In this document: one piece after another, positions 13,331-44,879 of the stretch
Layout of the letters: every line of letters begins with the position of its first letter
How positions within the stretch are numbered: the stretch's first letter is position 1
Assembly (NCBI RefSeq): GCF_052324685.1
Contig: NC_135225.1
Coordinates: forward strand, 3,802,201-3,866,200
Direction: 5' to 3'
Source: Brachyhypopomus gauderio
Taxonomy: Eukaryota; Chordata; Actinopteri; Gymnotiformes; Hypopomidae
DNA: 64,000 nucleotides
The notes under the pieces: model-generated
Seen by the model: the letters and a program-made list of their open reading frames with translations, nothing else
What the model was told of the DNA's origin: nothing
Databases searched by the model: none
Position numbers and translations under genes: made by a program

Positions 13331-15140
13331 GCTTTACAAGTGCATGGGTCCAGATCCCTAATCAGCAAGCCAGGAGCAACAGTGAAAAACTCCCTAGGTG
13401 GGATTAGGAAGAAACCTTGGGAGGACCAAGACTCAAAAAGGAGCCCATCCTCCATTGGGCAGCCCAGCTAGTAGAAGTCCAGTTGTATAATTCTGTATCT
13501 GCAGTCTCTCCAGTGTGGGTGTTGGGGCTCAGGTAGGAGACAGCATCGGTGTATCCGCTGGCAAACCAGGGCATTTTGTAGGTGCTGTGATGGGTAGGGT
13601 GAGCGAAAATAAATGGAAGCGATCACGCCAAGTCTCAGGGAAATAGGATGGTTTAATATGTAAAGTGCGCAAACCAAAACCCGTGAACTGATCCGAATTA
13701 AAGATATAATAACCAGCGGTCAACTGGTACAAAGACAAGACAGATATAGACGAACAAACGACCCTCAGGTGAGACGTATTGCGGGCTCCGCCCACTTGAG
13801 GGACGAACACAACACCACACCCACAGGACAAGCTGCTGCTGTAGATGGGGGCGACCAGTAGGGGGCCCTCCGTACCGTGACAGGTGCTTTATGGAATTGT
13901 CTTTGTAGAAACATGAAACCAGGATACAACATGCAGGTTATATATGTAAACATTGAATTAAACATTTGTATATATAGCACACGTGCCAGTGATTAGCATG
14001 TGGTTTCGGCAGGATTACATATAGCAGCACAACTAACTGGAGGAGACTGGAGATGACCACAGTCACAGGGTCACTGAGCCATTGCTTTCCACCCAAATCA
14101 TCGCCACAAACTCGAGTGAACGCATGACACGGCTGGATAGCAGCATCAATATCTCAGATTACTAGAAGACTCAGGGGGGCCCCCCGAGTACATTAACCGA
14201 AGGCTTGAATAAAGAGGCGAGTCATGAGCCTAGATTTAAAGTGAAACTATGTCTCTATCTCGGATTGGAGCTGGACGACTCTAAAGGAGAAGGTTCTGCC
14301 TCCGGACATAGTCTTACTTATTTTCCGAACCAAGAGAAACCCTGCATTTTGAGAGCACAGCAGGTGATATTTTGTGTATGCTATGAGTTCACTCAGAATT
14401 TGTGGAGCAATACTATTTAGCGCTTTGTGAGTCAACAGAAGAATTGTTAAATTAAATTGAGAGCCTGTGCAAGGCAGGAGAGAGAAGGAAAAATGTGATC
14501 GAATTTTCTAGCCCTGGTTAGGACTATGGCTGCGGCATTCTGTCCGAGTTGAAGTTTCTTTAGGGACATTTTAGAGCGTCCAATAAAAAGACAGTTACAG
14601 TAGTCCAATGTTGATGAGACAAAAGCATGGACCAGTTTCTGTGCATATGATAAGGAAAGTAAATGTCTCAGCTTAGTAATATTATGTAAATGGATAAAAG
14701 CAGCCTTACTAACATTACATATGTGTGTGTCAAATGAAAGATCAGAATCAGTAGTGACACCTAAGCTTTTACGGTAGGTGTAGATGTTACTTAAAAACAA
14801 TTTAGGGTCAGAGGAATATTAGACAAATTGCTTCTTGCAGCTTTGGGTCTTATCAGAATTCAGAAGACGAACATTTGACGGCATCCAGTTTTTTATTTTT
14901 TATTTCCTGGAAGCAGTTCTCAATTTTGGGAGTAGAATTGACATCATCTGGATTAGAAGATATAAGTGAGCATCATCTACACAGCACTGGGAGCTAATAG
15001 CCTCCAGTCGCACAACCACTACATCTTGCTATCTGCAAAAGGGAGAGTAGCACAATTAGTTATGCAAAAATCTCGGTCCTTGTTGAGTGTAGACGCAGTC
15101 TGAAACACTGAGATCTACTTCCACACTGTCAACAATGTAG
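13331..15140 (-). mobile_element. LINE remnant (L2/Rex1-like), split by a solo LTR
   Basis: The minus strand encodes the C-terminal part of a non-LTR reverse transcriptase: SLGVTTDSDLSFDTHI, KLVHAFVSSTLDYCNCLF, KKLQLGQNAAAIVLTRARK (14447-14800) and HKALNSIAPQ, GGRTFSFR (14247-14435). This thumb/C-terminal signature is typical of fish L2/Rex1-type LINEs. A frame break near 14440 separates the two pieces. The downstream part (lower coordinates) includes the fish repeat motif AGGAAGAAACCTTGGGAGGA. The solo LTR at 13586-13882 interrupts it. Confidence 0.75.
13586..13882 (-). mobile_element. Solo LTR, 297 bp, 5-bp TSD
   Basis: Begins TG and ends CA (TGTGATGGG...CCGTGACA). It is flanked by the perfect direct repeat GGTGC at 13581-13585 and 13883-13887. 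Read on the minus strand it starts TGTCACGGTACGGAGGGC, like fish Gypsy-type LTRs. No internal retroelement sequence is adjacent, so it is a solo LTR left by recombination. Confidence 0.8.
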
Positions 15141-15145
15141 GCTAG

Positions 15146-15497
15146 ATTACAGGCAAACATTAGCCTCCACTCCTCCCATTACAGGCAAACATTAGCCCCC
15201 ACTCCTCCCATTACAGGCAAACATTAGCCTCCACTCCTCCCATTACAGGCAAACATTAGCCTCCACTCCTCCCATTACAGGCAAACATTAGCCCCCACTC
15301 CTCCCATTACAGGCAAACATTAGCCTCCACTCCTCCCATTACAGGCAAACATTAGCCTCCACTCCTCCCATTACAGGCAAACATTAGCCTCCACTCCTCC
15401 CATTACAGGCAAACATTAGCCCCCACTCCTCCCATTACAGGCAAACATTAGCCTCCACTCCTCCCATTACAGGCAAACATTAGCCTCCACTCCTCCC
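15146..15497 (+). repeat. Minisatellite, 11 exact units of 32 bp
   Basis: The unit starts ATTACAGGCAAACATTAGC and ends CCACTCCTCCC. Exactly eleven 32-bp units fill 352 bp with no indels. The only variation is one T/C site (GCCTCC versus GCCCCC), with C in units 2, 5 and 9. Confidence 0.97.
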
Positions 15498-15654
15498 ATT
15501 CAAGCACTGCTGCATGATTTTTTTTTCTTCCCAAAAACAAATATATATAAAAAATATTGCAAAAAATTTTTTGCAGAATAAATGTTTGTAAAAACCTCCT
15601 ATTTGTGCTTTGCTGAATATCATATTCAAATTCAGCTGTGTGTGGCGTGTGTGT

Positions 15655-30460: not shown

Positions 30461-31108
30461 AATGTGACCCAGAGCCGTATAGAGAGAGAGTCGCGACAAC
30501 GGAAGTTCAAAACGCTTGATGGTCACGTGATTCACGGAGGCTTCAGATAGTTCCAGGAAGTTCAATTTGAGCGCATAGACACAGAGACAGAACTGCGATT
30601 TGAGGATTATTGTGAACATATAACGACCAACTTTAGGCTAATTTTAGAGCACATTGCTGTTTAATGCTTTGATTGTTTTATAATTGTTATATATTACGTT
30701 CATTTATATATTTAGAGGGACAGGAAGGGGTGAGAAATTCAGATTAGATTTATTTTCTAACATTAACATATCTTTAAATCATGGTAATTTCTGTAATCCC
30801 ATGGTATTGGTGACCTAAGTAATCTAAATGACTAATGTACATTTTCTGACAGAAGGAAAATTTTATTTGACTTCATTGTGCAGAAATATGCTTTAAAAGG
30901 GTACATTAAAACACATTACATTTACATCCAGACAGTATATAACATATTAAAATACATTGATAAATTATATATATATCTTGTCTTTTTAATACACACTTAT
31001 TTACAGCAATTAATTCATTAAATAAATCTCTAATAATCTCAAATATGAATATCATGTCAAGCAGTTTTTCTGTGTCCTTTCCTCCGTGTTGTTTGTGTAG
31101 TGTCCACC

Positions 31109-31258
31109 ATGGTTTGCTGTGTTGCATGGGGATGCTCCAATCGAGCAAATATTTTTGGTTTCCCCACTGATACTGAGAGGAGAAAAAAATGGTTGTCTCA
31201 ACTAAGCAGGAGCAATCTTACCCTCACTAAAGATTACAACAGCAAATATATATGTGAG
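31109..31258 (+). CDS. THAP-domain protein, exon 1
   Basis: Starts at an ideal Kozak context (CCACCATGG) and encodes 50 residues opening MVCCVAWGCSNR. This is the start of a THAP C2CH zinc finger, a sequence-specific DNA-binding fold. Zinc ligands C4 and C9 are present, as are the FGFP block, RRKKW tryptophan and the third ligand C49 in YICE. The exon ends in phase 0 at GAG|GTAATC. A possible acceptor (TGTGTAG, ending 31100) precedes the start, so an upstream noncoding exon may exist. No stop or frameshift interrupts it. It lies within the TIR-bounded element at 30470-32927, which argues that the gene is mobile. Which THAP subfamily it belongs to is not determined. Confidence 0.75.
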
Positions 31259-31601
31259 GTAATCATCAAACACTGCATTTGCACTTTTCACAATAAACAC
31301 ACTATTGGAAAGCTTAATGCCTGATTTATTAAAATACAGAATAGTGAACAAAAAAATCAAAGACTGCAGACAGACTCGGGTGCAGGGTGAGGGTGCTATC
31401 TAGTTGCAGCTCCATTGAATCCTCTATGGTTCTTTGGCTTAAAGAGAGAGAGGAGAAAAAGACAGGAGAAAATGATTATTATGAGTATTGATGTGATATG
31501 AATTTGAACTTGTTGCACATCCTTGGTTGTTTTTTATACGTGTAATGAGTGTATACGTATCCAGTAAGTGTTCTCTAATACTGTGTATTCACCCACTATG
31601 G

Positions 31602-31867
31602 CAGGGGTGCCCACAGTTTTCAGCTTGCGAGCTACTTATAAGATGACCCAGTCAGAAAGATCTACCGGGGTGGCGGCGAACGTAATTTGTTGAGTGGATT
31701 GCAGATTGGCTGCCGTGAATGTCAATCAAAATACAACCGTCAGTGCAGATGTGCGATTCATCTACTACTATTTTATGTGACGCGATCTACGCACATTCCT
31801 TCGCGATCGACCGACAGTTCCTTCGCGATCGACCGGTCGATCGCGATCGACGTAATGAGCACCCCTG
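31602..31867. mobile_element. hAT MITE, 266 bp, perfect 8-bp TSD
   Basis: Starts CAGGGGTGCCCAC and ends GTGAGC-type CACCCCTG. Flanked by CACTATGG at 31594-31601 and 31868-31875. Its interior GCTTGCGAGCTACTTATAAG and ATCGACCG palindromes match a common fish hAT family. It is inserted in the intron of the THAP gene, so it is younger than that element. Confidence 0.92.
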
Positions 31868-31937
31868 CACTATGGGATATATGGGTAGACGAAACTGAGT
31901 TGTCATGTGTGAGGAGTAAACTCACATCACTCTGCAG

Positions 31938-32127
31938 GCACATTTTGAGGCAGATCAGTTCATCAAAACCAAACAGGGCAACACTAGGCTGAGAGCAGAT
32001 GCTGTTCCCACCATTTTTGTGCATCGCCCCGCACTCAGAAAGAGGAAGCCCCCTGCAATACGACGCACCACTGGACCTGTAAAGACAGGGCCCATAGCTG
32101 CTGATCACAGCTATAGTGTTGACACAG
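31938..32127 (+). CDS. THAP-domain protein, exon 2
   Basis: Continues the THAP finger in phase 0 after acceptor CTCTGCAG. AHFEADQF supplies the last zinc ligand (H52) right after C49, giving the C-x2-H pair. LRADAVPTIF contains the AVPTIF box that ends nearly all THAP domains. A basic tail (RPALRKRKPPAIRR) follows, which could be a nuclear localisation signal. The exon may end at ACAG|GTATAA (32127, phase 1). If not spliced, the frame reads on through AT-rich sequence to a stop at 32247-32249, giving a total of about 153 residues. No transposase domain follows within the element. Confidence 0.7.
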
Positions 32128-32935
32128 GTATAATAAGTATGAACTCCTATTATATTATTATATTATATTATTTATTTCTGTTATTATATTATTATATTAT
32201 ATTATTATATTTATTTATATTATTAGAATTATATTATTTCTTTAAGTGATAGAATATTTAAAACTTAATCACACTAAATAGTATACGTCTTTTATATCCA
32301 GCAGTTTCAAAAACTGAGGAAATACGTTAATAAAATAAAAATAAATAAAACGAAATAAAAAGGAAAATAAAATAAATAAAAGGATAAATAAATAAAATAA
32401 AAGGAAATAAAACGTTAGCTGGTACTCCAAAATGGATATCTTCATTTTACCTCCTCGACCCAACACACTCTACAATCACACTCAAATGTTATATTTAACC
32501 AATACTAGCTACCCCGCAAAAACTTCGCGTTTAGGTGAAATGGCATTAAGAGAGGAATTTACAATTAATAGGCTATCGGTCGTTAATGTGAAATCTCGCT
32601 AACTGTATTCGCGTTGTCTTAGCATAGATTTAGTTCCCTAAATCTGCTTATTAAGAGGTGGATAATTCACTAAAATGCTTTAATTCACATTTTAATGCAC
32701 ATGCTAATTTGATTCTGATGTCCTTATAATACACAATCTGATTTTTTATGCGTACTAACCTGTAAAAGTGTATCACAGATGGTCCACTGCTCCAGTTTGA
32801 CTGCGCTGCTCGTATTTGCTGCTAACTTCCGGGAACTATTGACAGGCTCCACGATCCGCCATTGCTGTAAAAAACTGGTCCATTGGAGTGAACGGAGTTG
32901 ACGCGACTCTCTCTCTATAGGGCTCTGATGTGACC

Positions 32936-43527: not shown

Positions 43528-44555
43528 CAGGCCCGTTGACAGTCTTGCTGAGGCCCGGGACAATAAAGTTTCATGTGCCCCCCCCCCCCCCCCCCCCCCC
43601 CGCTTACGTCATTTGAATTTTCTCTGTAGCAGACAATCCTTGTGTTAGGTCATATAGTATATAATATAGCCACAGATCAAAGCTGTTTCTGACAGCTGAC
43701 TGGTTTATACTTGACGTGTCGCGAGCGGCGCGAGGGTCCGCGCTGCGAAAATTACGTAATCGCAATGGCACCGAACGTGCGCGAGGGTCTCGCGCGCTGT
43801 CGATTCGCGAGGTCGTGCACCTCTCGAATTTTGTAACTTCGCGCGCAGCCGCGCCTCAGCGCAATGAACAAAGTCACGTTTGCAGGGTTCATACACCTTT
43901 ACAAGGTGGAATTAAAGCACTTGTACGTCACTTTAAAGGTCCATTTCAATATTTCCCTGAACGCTAAACTTAATTAAGTTAAATATTTATACATATACTC
44001 GAAATAATTCGCTTTTTATTTACATTATTTAATGGTTGTTTATTTTTCAAAACGCCCATTATTAACGTCTTCACATTCTCTCATGTTTCGTCCTGGAATT
44101 ACATTTGTTGTGAAACGAAGTAGTACTTTAGCTTAAATTCCAGCACTTTTCAAACCTGGAACACAATGCATTAAAATACATTAAAATTCGTCAGGTAAAT
44201 GTTTTTTCTTTCTTTTCTGCCTCCAGATTTCTGTTTACTTTAACTATCCTCCACTGTATTTCCCGCTGTTGGGCGGGTACCAGCTGGTTACGGTCGATGC
44301 TGGATCAAACCATTTTTCAGTGGGAGGCGGGGGTATATGCACTTAATGGAAAATATGCAGATAGGTAAAAAAAAACATATATTTTAGCCATTGAGCTTAT
44401 TTTGAGTACAAAATTTTATATTAATGAAAGATTTCAAGATTATTTAAAATTATAGACTTTAAATAAAAAATAAATAGCTGGGCTCTTTGATGGGCCCCCC
44501 TGGCCCTGGGGCCCGGGACAACAGACCCGGTTGTCCCCCCCTGTCGACGGGGCTG
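43528..44555 (-). mobile_element. hAT-like element, copy 2, inverted within copy 1
   Basis: Ends CAGGCCCGTTGACAG and (reverse) CAGCCCCGTCGACAG. Perfect 8-bp target duplication ATTACGTT at 43520-43527 and 44556-44563. It is 1028 bp with no transposase frame. Its minus strand repeats copy 1 from the CAGCCCC end through the GCGCGCGAAGTTACAA block, so the pair forms a large inverted repeat. A run of 20 or more C at 43579-43602 is internal. Confidence 0.85.
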
Positions 44556-44879
44556 ATTACGTTAACAAATACGAGCCTCTTTTAATTCCAGGACGAAACA
44601 TGAGAGAACGTGAAGACGTTAAGATTGGGCGTTTTGAAAATAAACAACCATTAAATAATGTGATAAAAAAGCGAATTATATCGAATCATTTCGAGTATAT
44701 GTATAAATATTTAACTTAATTAAGTTTAACGTGCTGGAAAATATTGAAATGGACCTTTAAAGTGACGTACAAGTGCTTTAATTCCACCTTATAAAGGTGT
44801 ATGAACCCTGCAAACATGACTTTCTTTATTGCGCTGAGGCGCGGCGCGCGAAGTTACAAAAGTCGACCTCGTTTGTCAA

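What the first reader, a model, noticed from the sequence alone, without database searches (positions are those of the whole stretch)
30470..32927. A mobile element that encodes only an intact THAP DNA-binding domain
Seen: about 28-bp inverted termini, a perfect 8-bp target duplication (ATGTGACC), and between them a two-exon THAP finger with all four zinc ligands, the conserved W and the AVPTIF box intact. No transposase frame follows. Known: P-element transposases begin with a THAP domain, make 8-bp duplications, and truncated Drosophila P products (such as KP) that keep the DNA-binding part repress transposition. Inference: this may be a THAP-only nonautonomous element whose protein binds its own ends, acting as a mobile repressor or a newly dispersed transcription factor. 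The ETS-like GGAAGTT block shared by both arms could be promoter or binding site.
Basis: partly seen in the sequence, partly recalled or inferred. Interest (0 to 1): 0.87.

Follow-up and report, generated by a model that had tools for sequence, protein, structure and literature searches.

The report
Amplified P-element remnant keeping its THAP
This is one copy of a recently active jumping-gene family related to the fruit-fly P element that has lost its enzyme but still carries the DNA-binding front end; the front end seems preserved because the copies are young, and no sign was found that natural selection maintains it.

Summary
Window 30470-32927 has 31-nt inverted ends (94% complementary), a perfect 8-bp target duplication, and a THAP domain in spliced exons (Pfam E 1.6e-17) with no transposase. 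It is one of many copies: the exact 26-bp terminus occurs 143 times in this genome, against 0 for a reversed control. A 5,345-bp relative on contig C12 has the same ends, its own 8-bp duplication and the same THAP exons, predicted to splice in frame into a P-type transposase (RNase H N, GTP-binding insertion, sub-threshold RNase H C). The window element is that transposon with about 3 kb removed and an 86-bp A/T-rich filler left. The filler is wholly or partly present in 49 of 52 copies read, so one deletion founded the family. The window copy differs from two others, with different target duplications, by 2 and 4 bases, so it moved recently, presumably by borrowed transposase. The repressor or transcription-factor reading is not supported: THAP substitutions look neutral (19 of 83 synonymous; 22.5% expected), the predicted 122-aa protein ends before the likely dimerisation region, it lacks four loop residues of the full-length THAP, and copies without exon 2 also spread. 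A new member of a known kind (KP-like, Izanagi-like derivatives).

The parts
30462..30469 (.). left copy of 8-bp target-site duplication ATGTGACC
30470..30500 (+). left terminal inverted repeat (31 nt, 94% complementary to the right one)
   Evidence: the 26-base core has 143 exact matches genome-wide, control 0
30536..30562 (+). left subterminal inverted repeat GGAGGCTTCAGATAGTTCCAGGAAGTT; core ATAGTTCC at 30547-30554
   Evidence: 1 of 1000 base shuffles scores as high or higher; core at nearly the same distance in the sister family
31109..31258 (+). THAP exon 1 (start codon in CCACCATGG, zinc Cys pair, W, ends ..YICE)
31602..31867 (.). nested MITE (CAGGGGTGCCC...GAGCACCCCTG) in intron 1, with its own 8-bp duplication CACTATGG (31594-31601, 31868-31875); not part of the family
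   Evidence: no other row covers it (rows end at element position 1132 or start at 1399); the 266-bp unit recurs elsewhere
31938..32127 (+). THAP exon 2 (CEAHF, AVPTIF box, basic linker)
   Evidence: acceptor; frame and donor GT in copies (donor scores weakly)
32302..32330 (+). remnant of exon 3 (AVSKTEEIR then TAA); in full-length-type relatives it continues into transposase; the last codon before the stop is already filler
32325..32410 (.). A/T-rich 86-bp filler at the internal-deletion junction, replacing about 2.9-3.3 kb of transposase-coding DNA
32411..32927 (.). right arm of the transposon, 96.1% identical to the right arm of the full-length C12 copy
32824..32850 (-). right subterminal inverted repeat; core ATAGTTCC at 32832-32839
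32897..32927 (-). right terminal inverted repeat
32928..32935 (.). right copy of target-site duplication ATGTGACC

Best explanation
The element is an internal-deletion derivative of a full-length P-superfamily transposon living in the same genome. One ancestral copy lost the transposase part, about 3 kb from eight codons into exon 3 to the 3' region, and the gap was closed with an A/T-rich filler (shown by alignment). That derivative then spread, moved in trans by transposase made elsewhere and recognising the shared termini and subterminal repeats (mobility shown by target duplications and near-identical copies at different sites; the source of transposase is inferred). The THAP exons are carried along. 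They are still open in most copies read because the copies are young; no constraint on the protein was detected. If expressed, the 122-aa product would be a THAP finger with a basic tail and without the dimerisation, HTH, catalytic or GTP-binding parts (inferred).
For: Full-length C12 copy (G000:C12:2789366-2794710, 5,345 bp): same 26-bp TIR at both ends, 8-bp duplication CTCTGAAC, left arm 93.7% and right arm 96.1% identical to the window element, with the filler exactly at the gap. Its frames hit TNP-like RNaseH_N (7.8e-27), GBD (2e-07) and weakly RNaseH_C (1.4e-04, 22.2 bits, under the 24-bit cut-off). The C6 copy has one 672-codon frame containing AVSKTEEIRDEDTERR..., so the window's exon 3 is its truncated start. 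Filler: at least 50 of 86 bp present in 46 of 52 THAP-type copies, partly in 3 more, not covered in 3; absent in 3 of 3 full-length-type copies. Perfect 8-bp duplications in 32 of the 34 copies where both ends were found, of 53 examined. Window vs L009 2 of 2,164 and vs L010 4 of 2,184 differences, with different duplications. Neutral N:S, pooled ratio 0.98, 95% CI 0.58-1.73. Copies without exon 2 (L023, L026, L076) share the right breakpoint of a secondary deletion; L023 and L076 have perfect duplications of their own, as has L040 with a different deletion of exon 2.
Against: Of the 44 copies with both exons, 30 are open with the full signature and 3 more are open with a changed signature residue; only 11 are broken (three of the 44 are one triplicated C8 copy). 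That fits youth, but weak or recent selection (ratio down to about 0.6 pooled, 0.33 for shared variants alone) is not excluded. Exon 1 differs from the consensus less (0.67%) than non-coding sequence does (1.12%); exon 2 (1.40%) and the exon 3 remnant (1.58%) do not. None of the three full-length-type copies read has an uninterrupted THAP-plus-transposase gene, so the present transposase source is not shown.
Confidence: 0.9

Rival explanations
1. Mobile repressor: the THAP-only protein binds the subterminal repeats of its own family and blocks transposase, as the Drosophila KP protein does, so that the deletion derivative was favoured.
For: Known precedent that small P elements encode repressors such as the 207-aa KP protein (PMC7776569, passages). 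Start codon context CCACCATGG in the window copy; GT/AG at intron 1 and an open frame in 33 of 44 copies. Exon 1 is less diverged than non-coding DNA. Subterminal core conserved with a sister family whose THAP is about 55% identical over exon 1.
Against: Neutral N:S. The protein stops before the zipper-like region, which was named by eye and by a crude heptad score (0.625 against 0.50 for the window protein). A 4-residue deletion in the zinc-finger loop relative to full-length-type relatives. Derivatives without exon 2 also spread. No expression data.
Confidence: 0.1
2. Dispersed transcription factor: the THAP copies act as new host regulators.
For: Many scattered copies, 33 of the 44 read with both exons having an open frame.
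Against: No sign of constraint on the codons as a whole; recent copies; 11 of 44 broken. A single domesticated copy among many would escape this test.
Confidence: 0.03
3. The THAP exons belong to a host gene (conserved single-copy locus) that happens to lie between chance repeats.
For: None found.
Against: The termini occur 143 times. THAP exons lie inside multiple copies with different 8-bp duplications.
Confidence: 0.01
4. Independent THAP capture: a non-P (for example hAT) MITE picked up a host THAP exon.
For: 8-bp duplications and CAG-type ends also occur in hAT elements (recalled).
Against: The same ends flank THAP plus a P-type RNase H/GBD transposase in the C12 copy, in compatible frame.
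Confidence: 0.02

Closest known systems
Izanagi, non-autonomous P element of medaka (PMC2820524, passages)
   Same: 27-bp TIR, 8-bp duplications, multi-copy, contains THAP-coding exons, no transposase
   Different: 1,316 bp; TIR CAATGAGTTATATCACTAGAGGAGACA is a different sequence; its THAP is described as degenerate, in three putative exons; the passages seen mention no full-length relative
KP and other internally deleted Drosophila P elements (PMC7776569, passages)
   Same: internally deleted, non-autonomous P elements; small ones can encode proteins such as KP; that KP keeps the THAP end is recalled
   Different: KP encodes 207 aa, this 122 aa, ending before the zipper-like region; KP is a known repressor, here there is no evidence for repression
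Zebrafish Pdre2 and its internally deleted copies (PMC10983969, passages)
   Same: vertebrate P-type transposon with THAP transposase, 8-bp duplications and internally deleted copies
   Different: Pdre2 TIR is 13 bp (CATACCTGTCAAC) with 12-bp subterminal repeats; sequence unlike this family's ends
Sister P family in the same genome, e.g. G000:C182:41152-45645
   Same: related TIR CAGAGCCGTAGAAAGAGAGAGTTGCGACAC, nearly the same subterminal ATAGTTCC spacing, THAP plus RNase H/GBD
   Different: 4,494 bp, 795-codon transposase exon open; THAP only about 55% identical over exon 1

Membership tests
P transposon superfamily | 8-bp target-site duplication | tested here: met
   window copy, and 32 of 34 copies with both ends found, of 53 examined
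P transposon superfamily | terminal and subterminal inverted repeats | tested here: met
   31-nt TIR; subterminal ATAGTTCC at 78 and 89 from the two ends in the window and C12 elements, 77 and 90 in the sister
P transposon superfamily | THAP joined to RNase H with GTP-binding insertion in the autonomous relative | tested here: met
   C12/C6 copies: THAP exons, RNaseH_N and GBD over cut-off, RNaseH_C below it; the join is predicted, and each copy read has defects
P transposon superfamily | transposase in the window element itself | tested here: not met
   deleted; the element is non-autonomous
KP-type repressor element | internal deletion retaining both ends and THAP | tested here: met
KP-type repressor element | retains the dimerisation (leucine zipper) region between THAP and RNase H | tested here: not met
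   the window frame stops nine residues into exon 3; the zipper-like stretch lies about 70-115 residues into the full-length exon 3 frame (by eye and crude heptad score)
KP-type repressor element | represses transposition | not testable with these tools
   needs a cell assay
Izanagi (medaka) | same terminal sequence | tested here: not met
   published TIR differs from the window TIR
hAT MITE | mobilised by or derived from a hAT transposase | tested here: not met
   the full-length relative with the same ends carries P-type domains, no hAT match listed

The most novel reading that the evidence does not exclude
A THAP-only derivative founded by one deletion in a vertebrate P family makes a minimal THAP protein that still competes for the subterminal ATAGTTCC sites of its own and a sister family, acting as a trans repressor shorter than KP; its open frames reflect short-lived selection too weak to see at 1% divergence.
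Probability: 0.1. Interest if true: 0.65.

Novelty: new member of a known kind. Interest (0 to 1): 0.34.

Why it matters
It documents a recently active P-superfamily lineage in one (reportedly fish) genome with a full-length relative, a sister family with an open 795-codon transposase exon, and deletion derivatives of both. That is a natural system for asking how P-type ends are recognised and whether truncated THAP products regulate transposition outside insects. The specific claim of a selected THAP-only repressor is weakened by the data.

Tried and rejected
Viral-collection searches with the protein and the TIR found nothing. A paper search for the TIR letters found 0 papers. I first assumed an intact full-length copy would exist. 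The three read each have defects: C6 has a stop in exon 1 and no right terminus in the stretch fetched; C12's transposase frame is split by about 390 bp relative to C6, which I did not test as a possible intron; C16 lacks the left 85 bp and the start codon. Other full-length copies may exist unread. I considered whether the right end encodes a second, opposite gene (donor-like site at 32760 on the minus strand) and dropped it without a protein search. The arms' promoter motifs were only located, not tested. Traits of P, hAT and KP not attributed to a call are recalled. No tree was built; variants were counted as unique site changes against a consensus, so recurrent changes and gene conversion are not separated. 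The triplicated C8 copy (L042-L044) counts three times; collapsing it leaves S at 13 of 60 private and 6 of 23 shared. The 52 THAP-type copies were chosen by best score, so older and more broken copies are under-represented, which biases the open-frame counts upward.

Full report
Observation. The sequence at 30470-32927 is as described. The termini are 31 nt and 94% complementary, the 8-bp flanks are identical, and no other place in the window matches the 25-base core with up to 3 mismatches. The THAP exons give Pfam THAP at 1.6e-17 over the full model; the best solved relatives are THAP2 and THAP1. There is also a short predicted third exon, 32302-32330, and a nested MITE in intron 1, 31602-31867, with its own duplication CACTATGG. 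No other row of the genome search covers that MITE: rows end at element position 1132 or start at 1399. The 266-bp unit is a family of its own (40 of 1,587 candidates scored, most rows covering positions 1-266). Splice-site scores support the exon 1 donor (top 3.1% of GT in the window) and the exon 2 and exon 3 acceptors (top 2.7% and 2.3%), but the exon 2 donor is not among the ten best of the element (matrix recalled). No transcript was available.

Copies. The window lies in a 796.5-Mb genome of 840 contigs. The exact 26-base terminus has 77 forward and 66 reverse matches; the reversed control has 0. The element search scored 40 of 1,887 candidates and returned 87 matching pieces. The right 188 bp scored 40 of 190 candidates, all 98-100% identical. 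The THAP protein search scored 150 of 768 candidates. These are lower bounds. I read 52 THAP-type copies (39, and the window) and three full-length-type copies.

Full-length relative. A search for the P-type RNase H family gave 88 matches from 94 candidates. Among them, C12 holds a 5,345-bp element with the same terminus at both ends and duplication CTCTGAAC. Its left arm is 93.7% and its right arm 96.1% identical to the window element. Its reading frames match TNP-like RNaseH_N and GBD over their cut-offs and RNaseH_C below its cut-off. The C6 copy shows the exon 3 frame AVSKTEEIRDEDTERRESE... in a stretch of 672 codons. The window's exon 3 has the same first nine residues, the ninth already coded by filler, and then a stop. 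The window element is therefore this transposon with about 2.9 kb (against C6) to 3.3 kb (against C12) missing between 32324 and 32411. At least 50 of the 86 filler bases are present in 46 of 52 THAP-type copies, 24 in 3 (L023, L026, L076), and none was covered in 3 (L020, L038, L040); none is present in 3 of 3 full-length-type copies. Each of the three full-length-type copies read has defects, listed under tried and rejected.

Mobility. Of 53 copies examined (52 THAP-type and C12), both ends were found in 34; 32 of these have perfect 8-bp duplications and 2 do not (L020, L037), while 19 had no end pair recognised in the stretch fetched. The 30 independent duplications carry 3.26 bits of information against a mean of 0.89 and at most 2.13 in 2,000 random draws; the commonest bases are GTTTAAAC. 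The window copy differs from L009 by 2 of 2,164 and from L010 by 4 of 2,184 aligned bases, MITE left out, and the three have different duplications. Median divergence from the consensus is 1.02% over 52 copies.

Is the THAP maintained? Of 52 THAP-type copies, 8 lack an exon in the stretch read. Of the other 44, 30 are open with the full signature, 3 are open with a signature residue changed, and 11 are broken. Substitutions were classified in the 42 copies with at least 85% of the coding columns. Private variants: 13 synonymous of 59. Shared variants: 6 of 24. The expectation from the family's own non-coding spectrum is 22.5%. With the triplicated C8 copy collapsed the counts are 13 of 60 and 6 of 23. 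The pooled non-synonymous/synonymous ratio is 0.98 (95% CI 0.58-1.73), and a ratio of 0.3 is rejected (P 8e-07); for shared variants alone the interval is wide, 0.33-2.68. Against the neutral reading, exon 1 differs from the consensus less than non-coding DNA (0.67% against 1.12%), though exon 2 (1.40%) and the exon 3 remnant (1.58%) do not. None of the 50 THAP-type copies with exon 1 read has the 12-bp piece (residues SEKG) found in the three full-length-type copies. L023, L026 and L076 lack exon 2 through deletions with the same right breakpoint (left 1137 in two, 1119 in the third, in element numbering); L023 and L076 have perfect duplications of their own, and only one end was recognised in L026. 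L040 lost exon 2 through another deletion and also has a perfect duplication. So mobility did not need the THAP protein in cis.

Ends and mechanism. A sister family at C182:41152-45645 (4,494 bp, duplication GTCCCGCC, 30-bp perfect TIR) has a 795-codon open transposase exon and a THAP exon. Its ends align with this family's. ATAGTTCC starts at 78 (this family) or 77 (sister) from the left end and at 89 or 90 from the right end, preceded by GGAG; GGAAGT is not next to it in the sister, which has one at 63 from its right end. [quoted passage not shown] I infer that this is a transposase or THAP site and that either family's transposase could have moved the derivative in trans; neither was tested.

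Comparison. Izanagi of medaka is the nearest published case seen: 27-bp TIR, 8-bp duplications, THAP exons, no transposase (PMC2820524, passages). Zebrafish Pdre2 has internally deleted copies too (PMC10983969, passages). KP of Drosophila is the functional precedent for repression (PMC7776569, passages), but the window protein ends before the zipper-like region of its own relative. The terminus letters were not found in the library held; I could not search a repeat database, so this family may already be catalogued there.

Verdict. A real, well-resolved, recently mobile deletion derivative of a P-superfamily transposon: a new member of a known kind. The repressor or transcription-factor proposal remains possible but has evidence against it.

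Noticed in passing
L056 (536-2586), L060 (752-2846), L061 (536-2622): Deletion derivatives with the sister family's ends, about 2.05-2.1 kb, with perfect 8-bp duplications, that keep a 228-265-codon frame with RNase H N (domain checked as a protein in L056) and gave no THAP match: the reverse of the window element.
   Followed up: partly
L052 with L086 and L087 (G000:C182:41152-45645): Sister P transposon with perfect ends, GTCCCGCC duplication and a 795-codon open transposase exon; 4 matches have a 795-codon frame (two of them on the same contig), which suggests recent activity.
   Followed up: partly
G000:C16:11778438-11971540; C73 and C19 arrays (of these only L065-L067, L070 and L073 on C16 were read): Eight P-type RNase H matches at 25-33-kb spacing on C16, and many on C73 and C19, suggesting tandem segmental duplications that carry P sequences.
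   Followed up: no
L042, L043, L044 (G000:C8 around 11.80, 11.88 and 11.97 Mb): Three identical copies with the same duplication, about 85-87 kb apart: probably a segmental duplication, not three insertions.
   Followed up: partly
31602-31867: Nested MITE with 8-bp duplication CACTATGG inside intron 1; a family elsewhere in the genome, 40 of 1,587 candidates scored, 91-100% identical over the main pieces.
   Followed up: partly
15082-15564: Array of a 32-bp minisatellite; 6 of 11 registered copies are 98-100% like the reference copy.
   Followed up: no
43848-44845: Inverted repeat, arms of 164 nt, 95% complementary, 670 nt apart; possibly another transposon.
   Followed up: no
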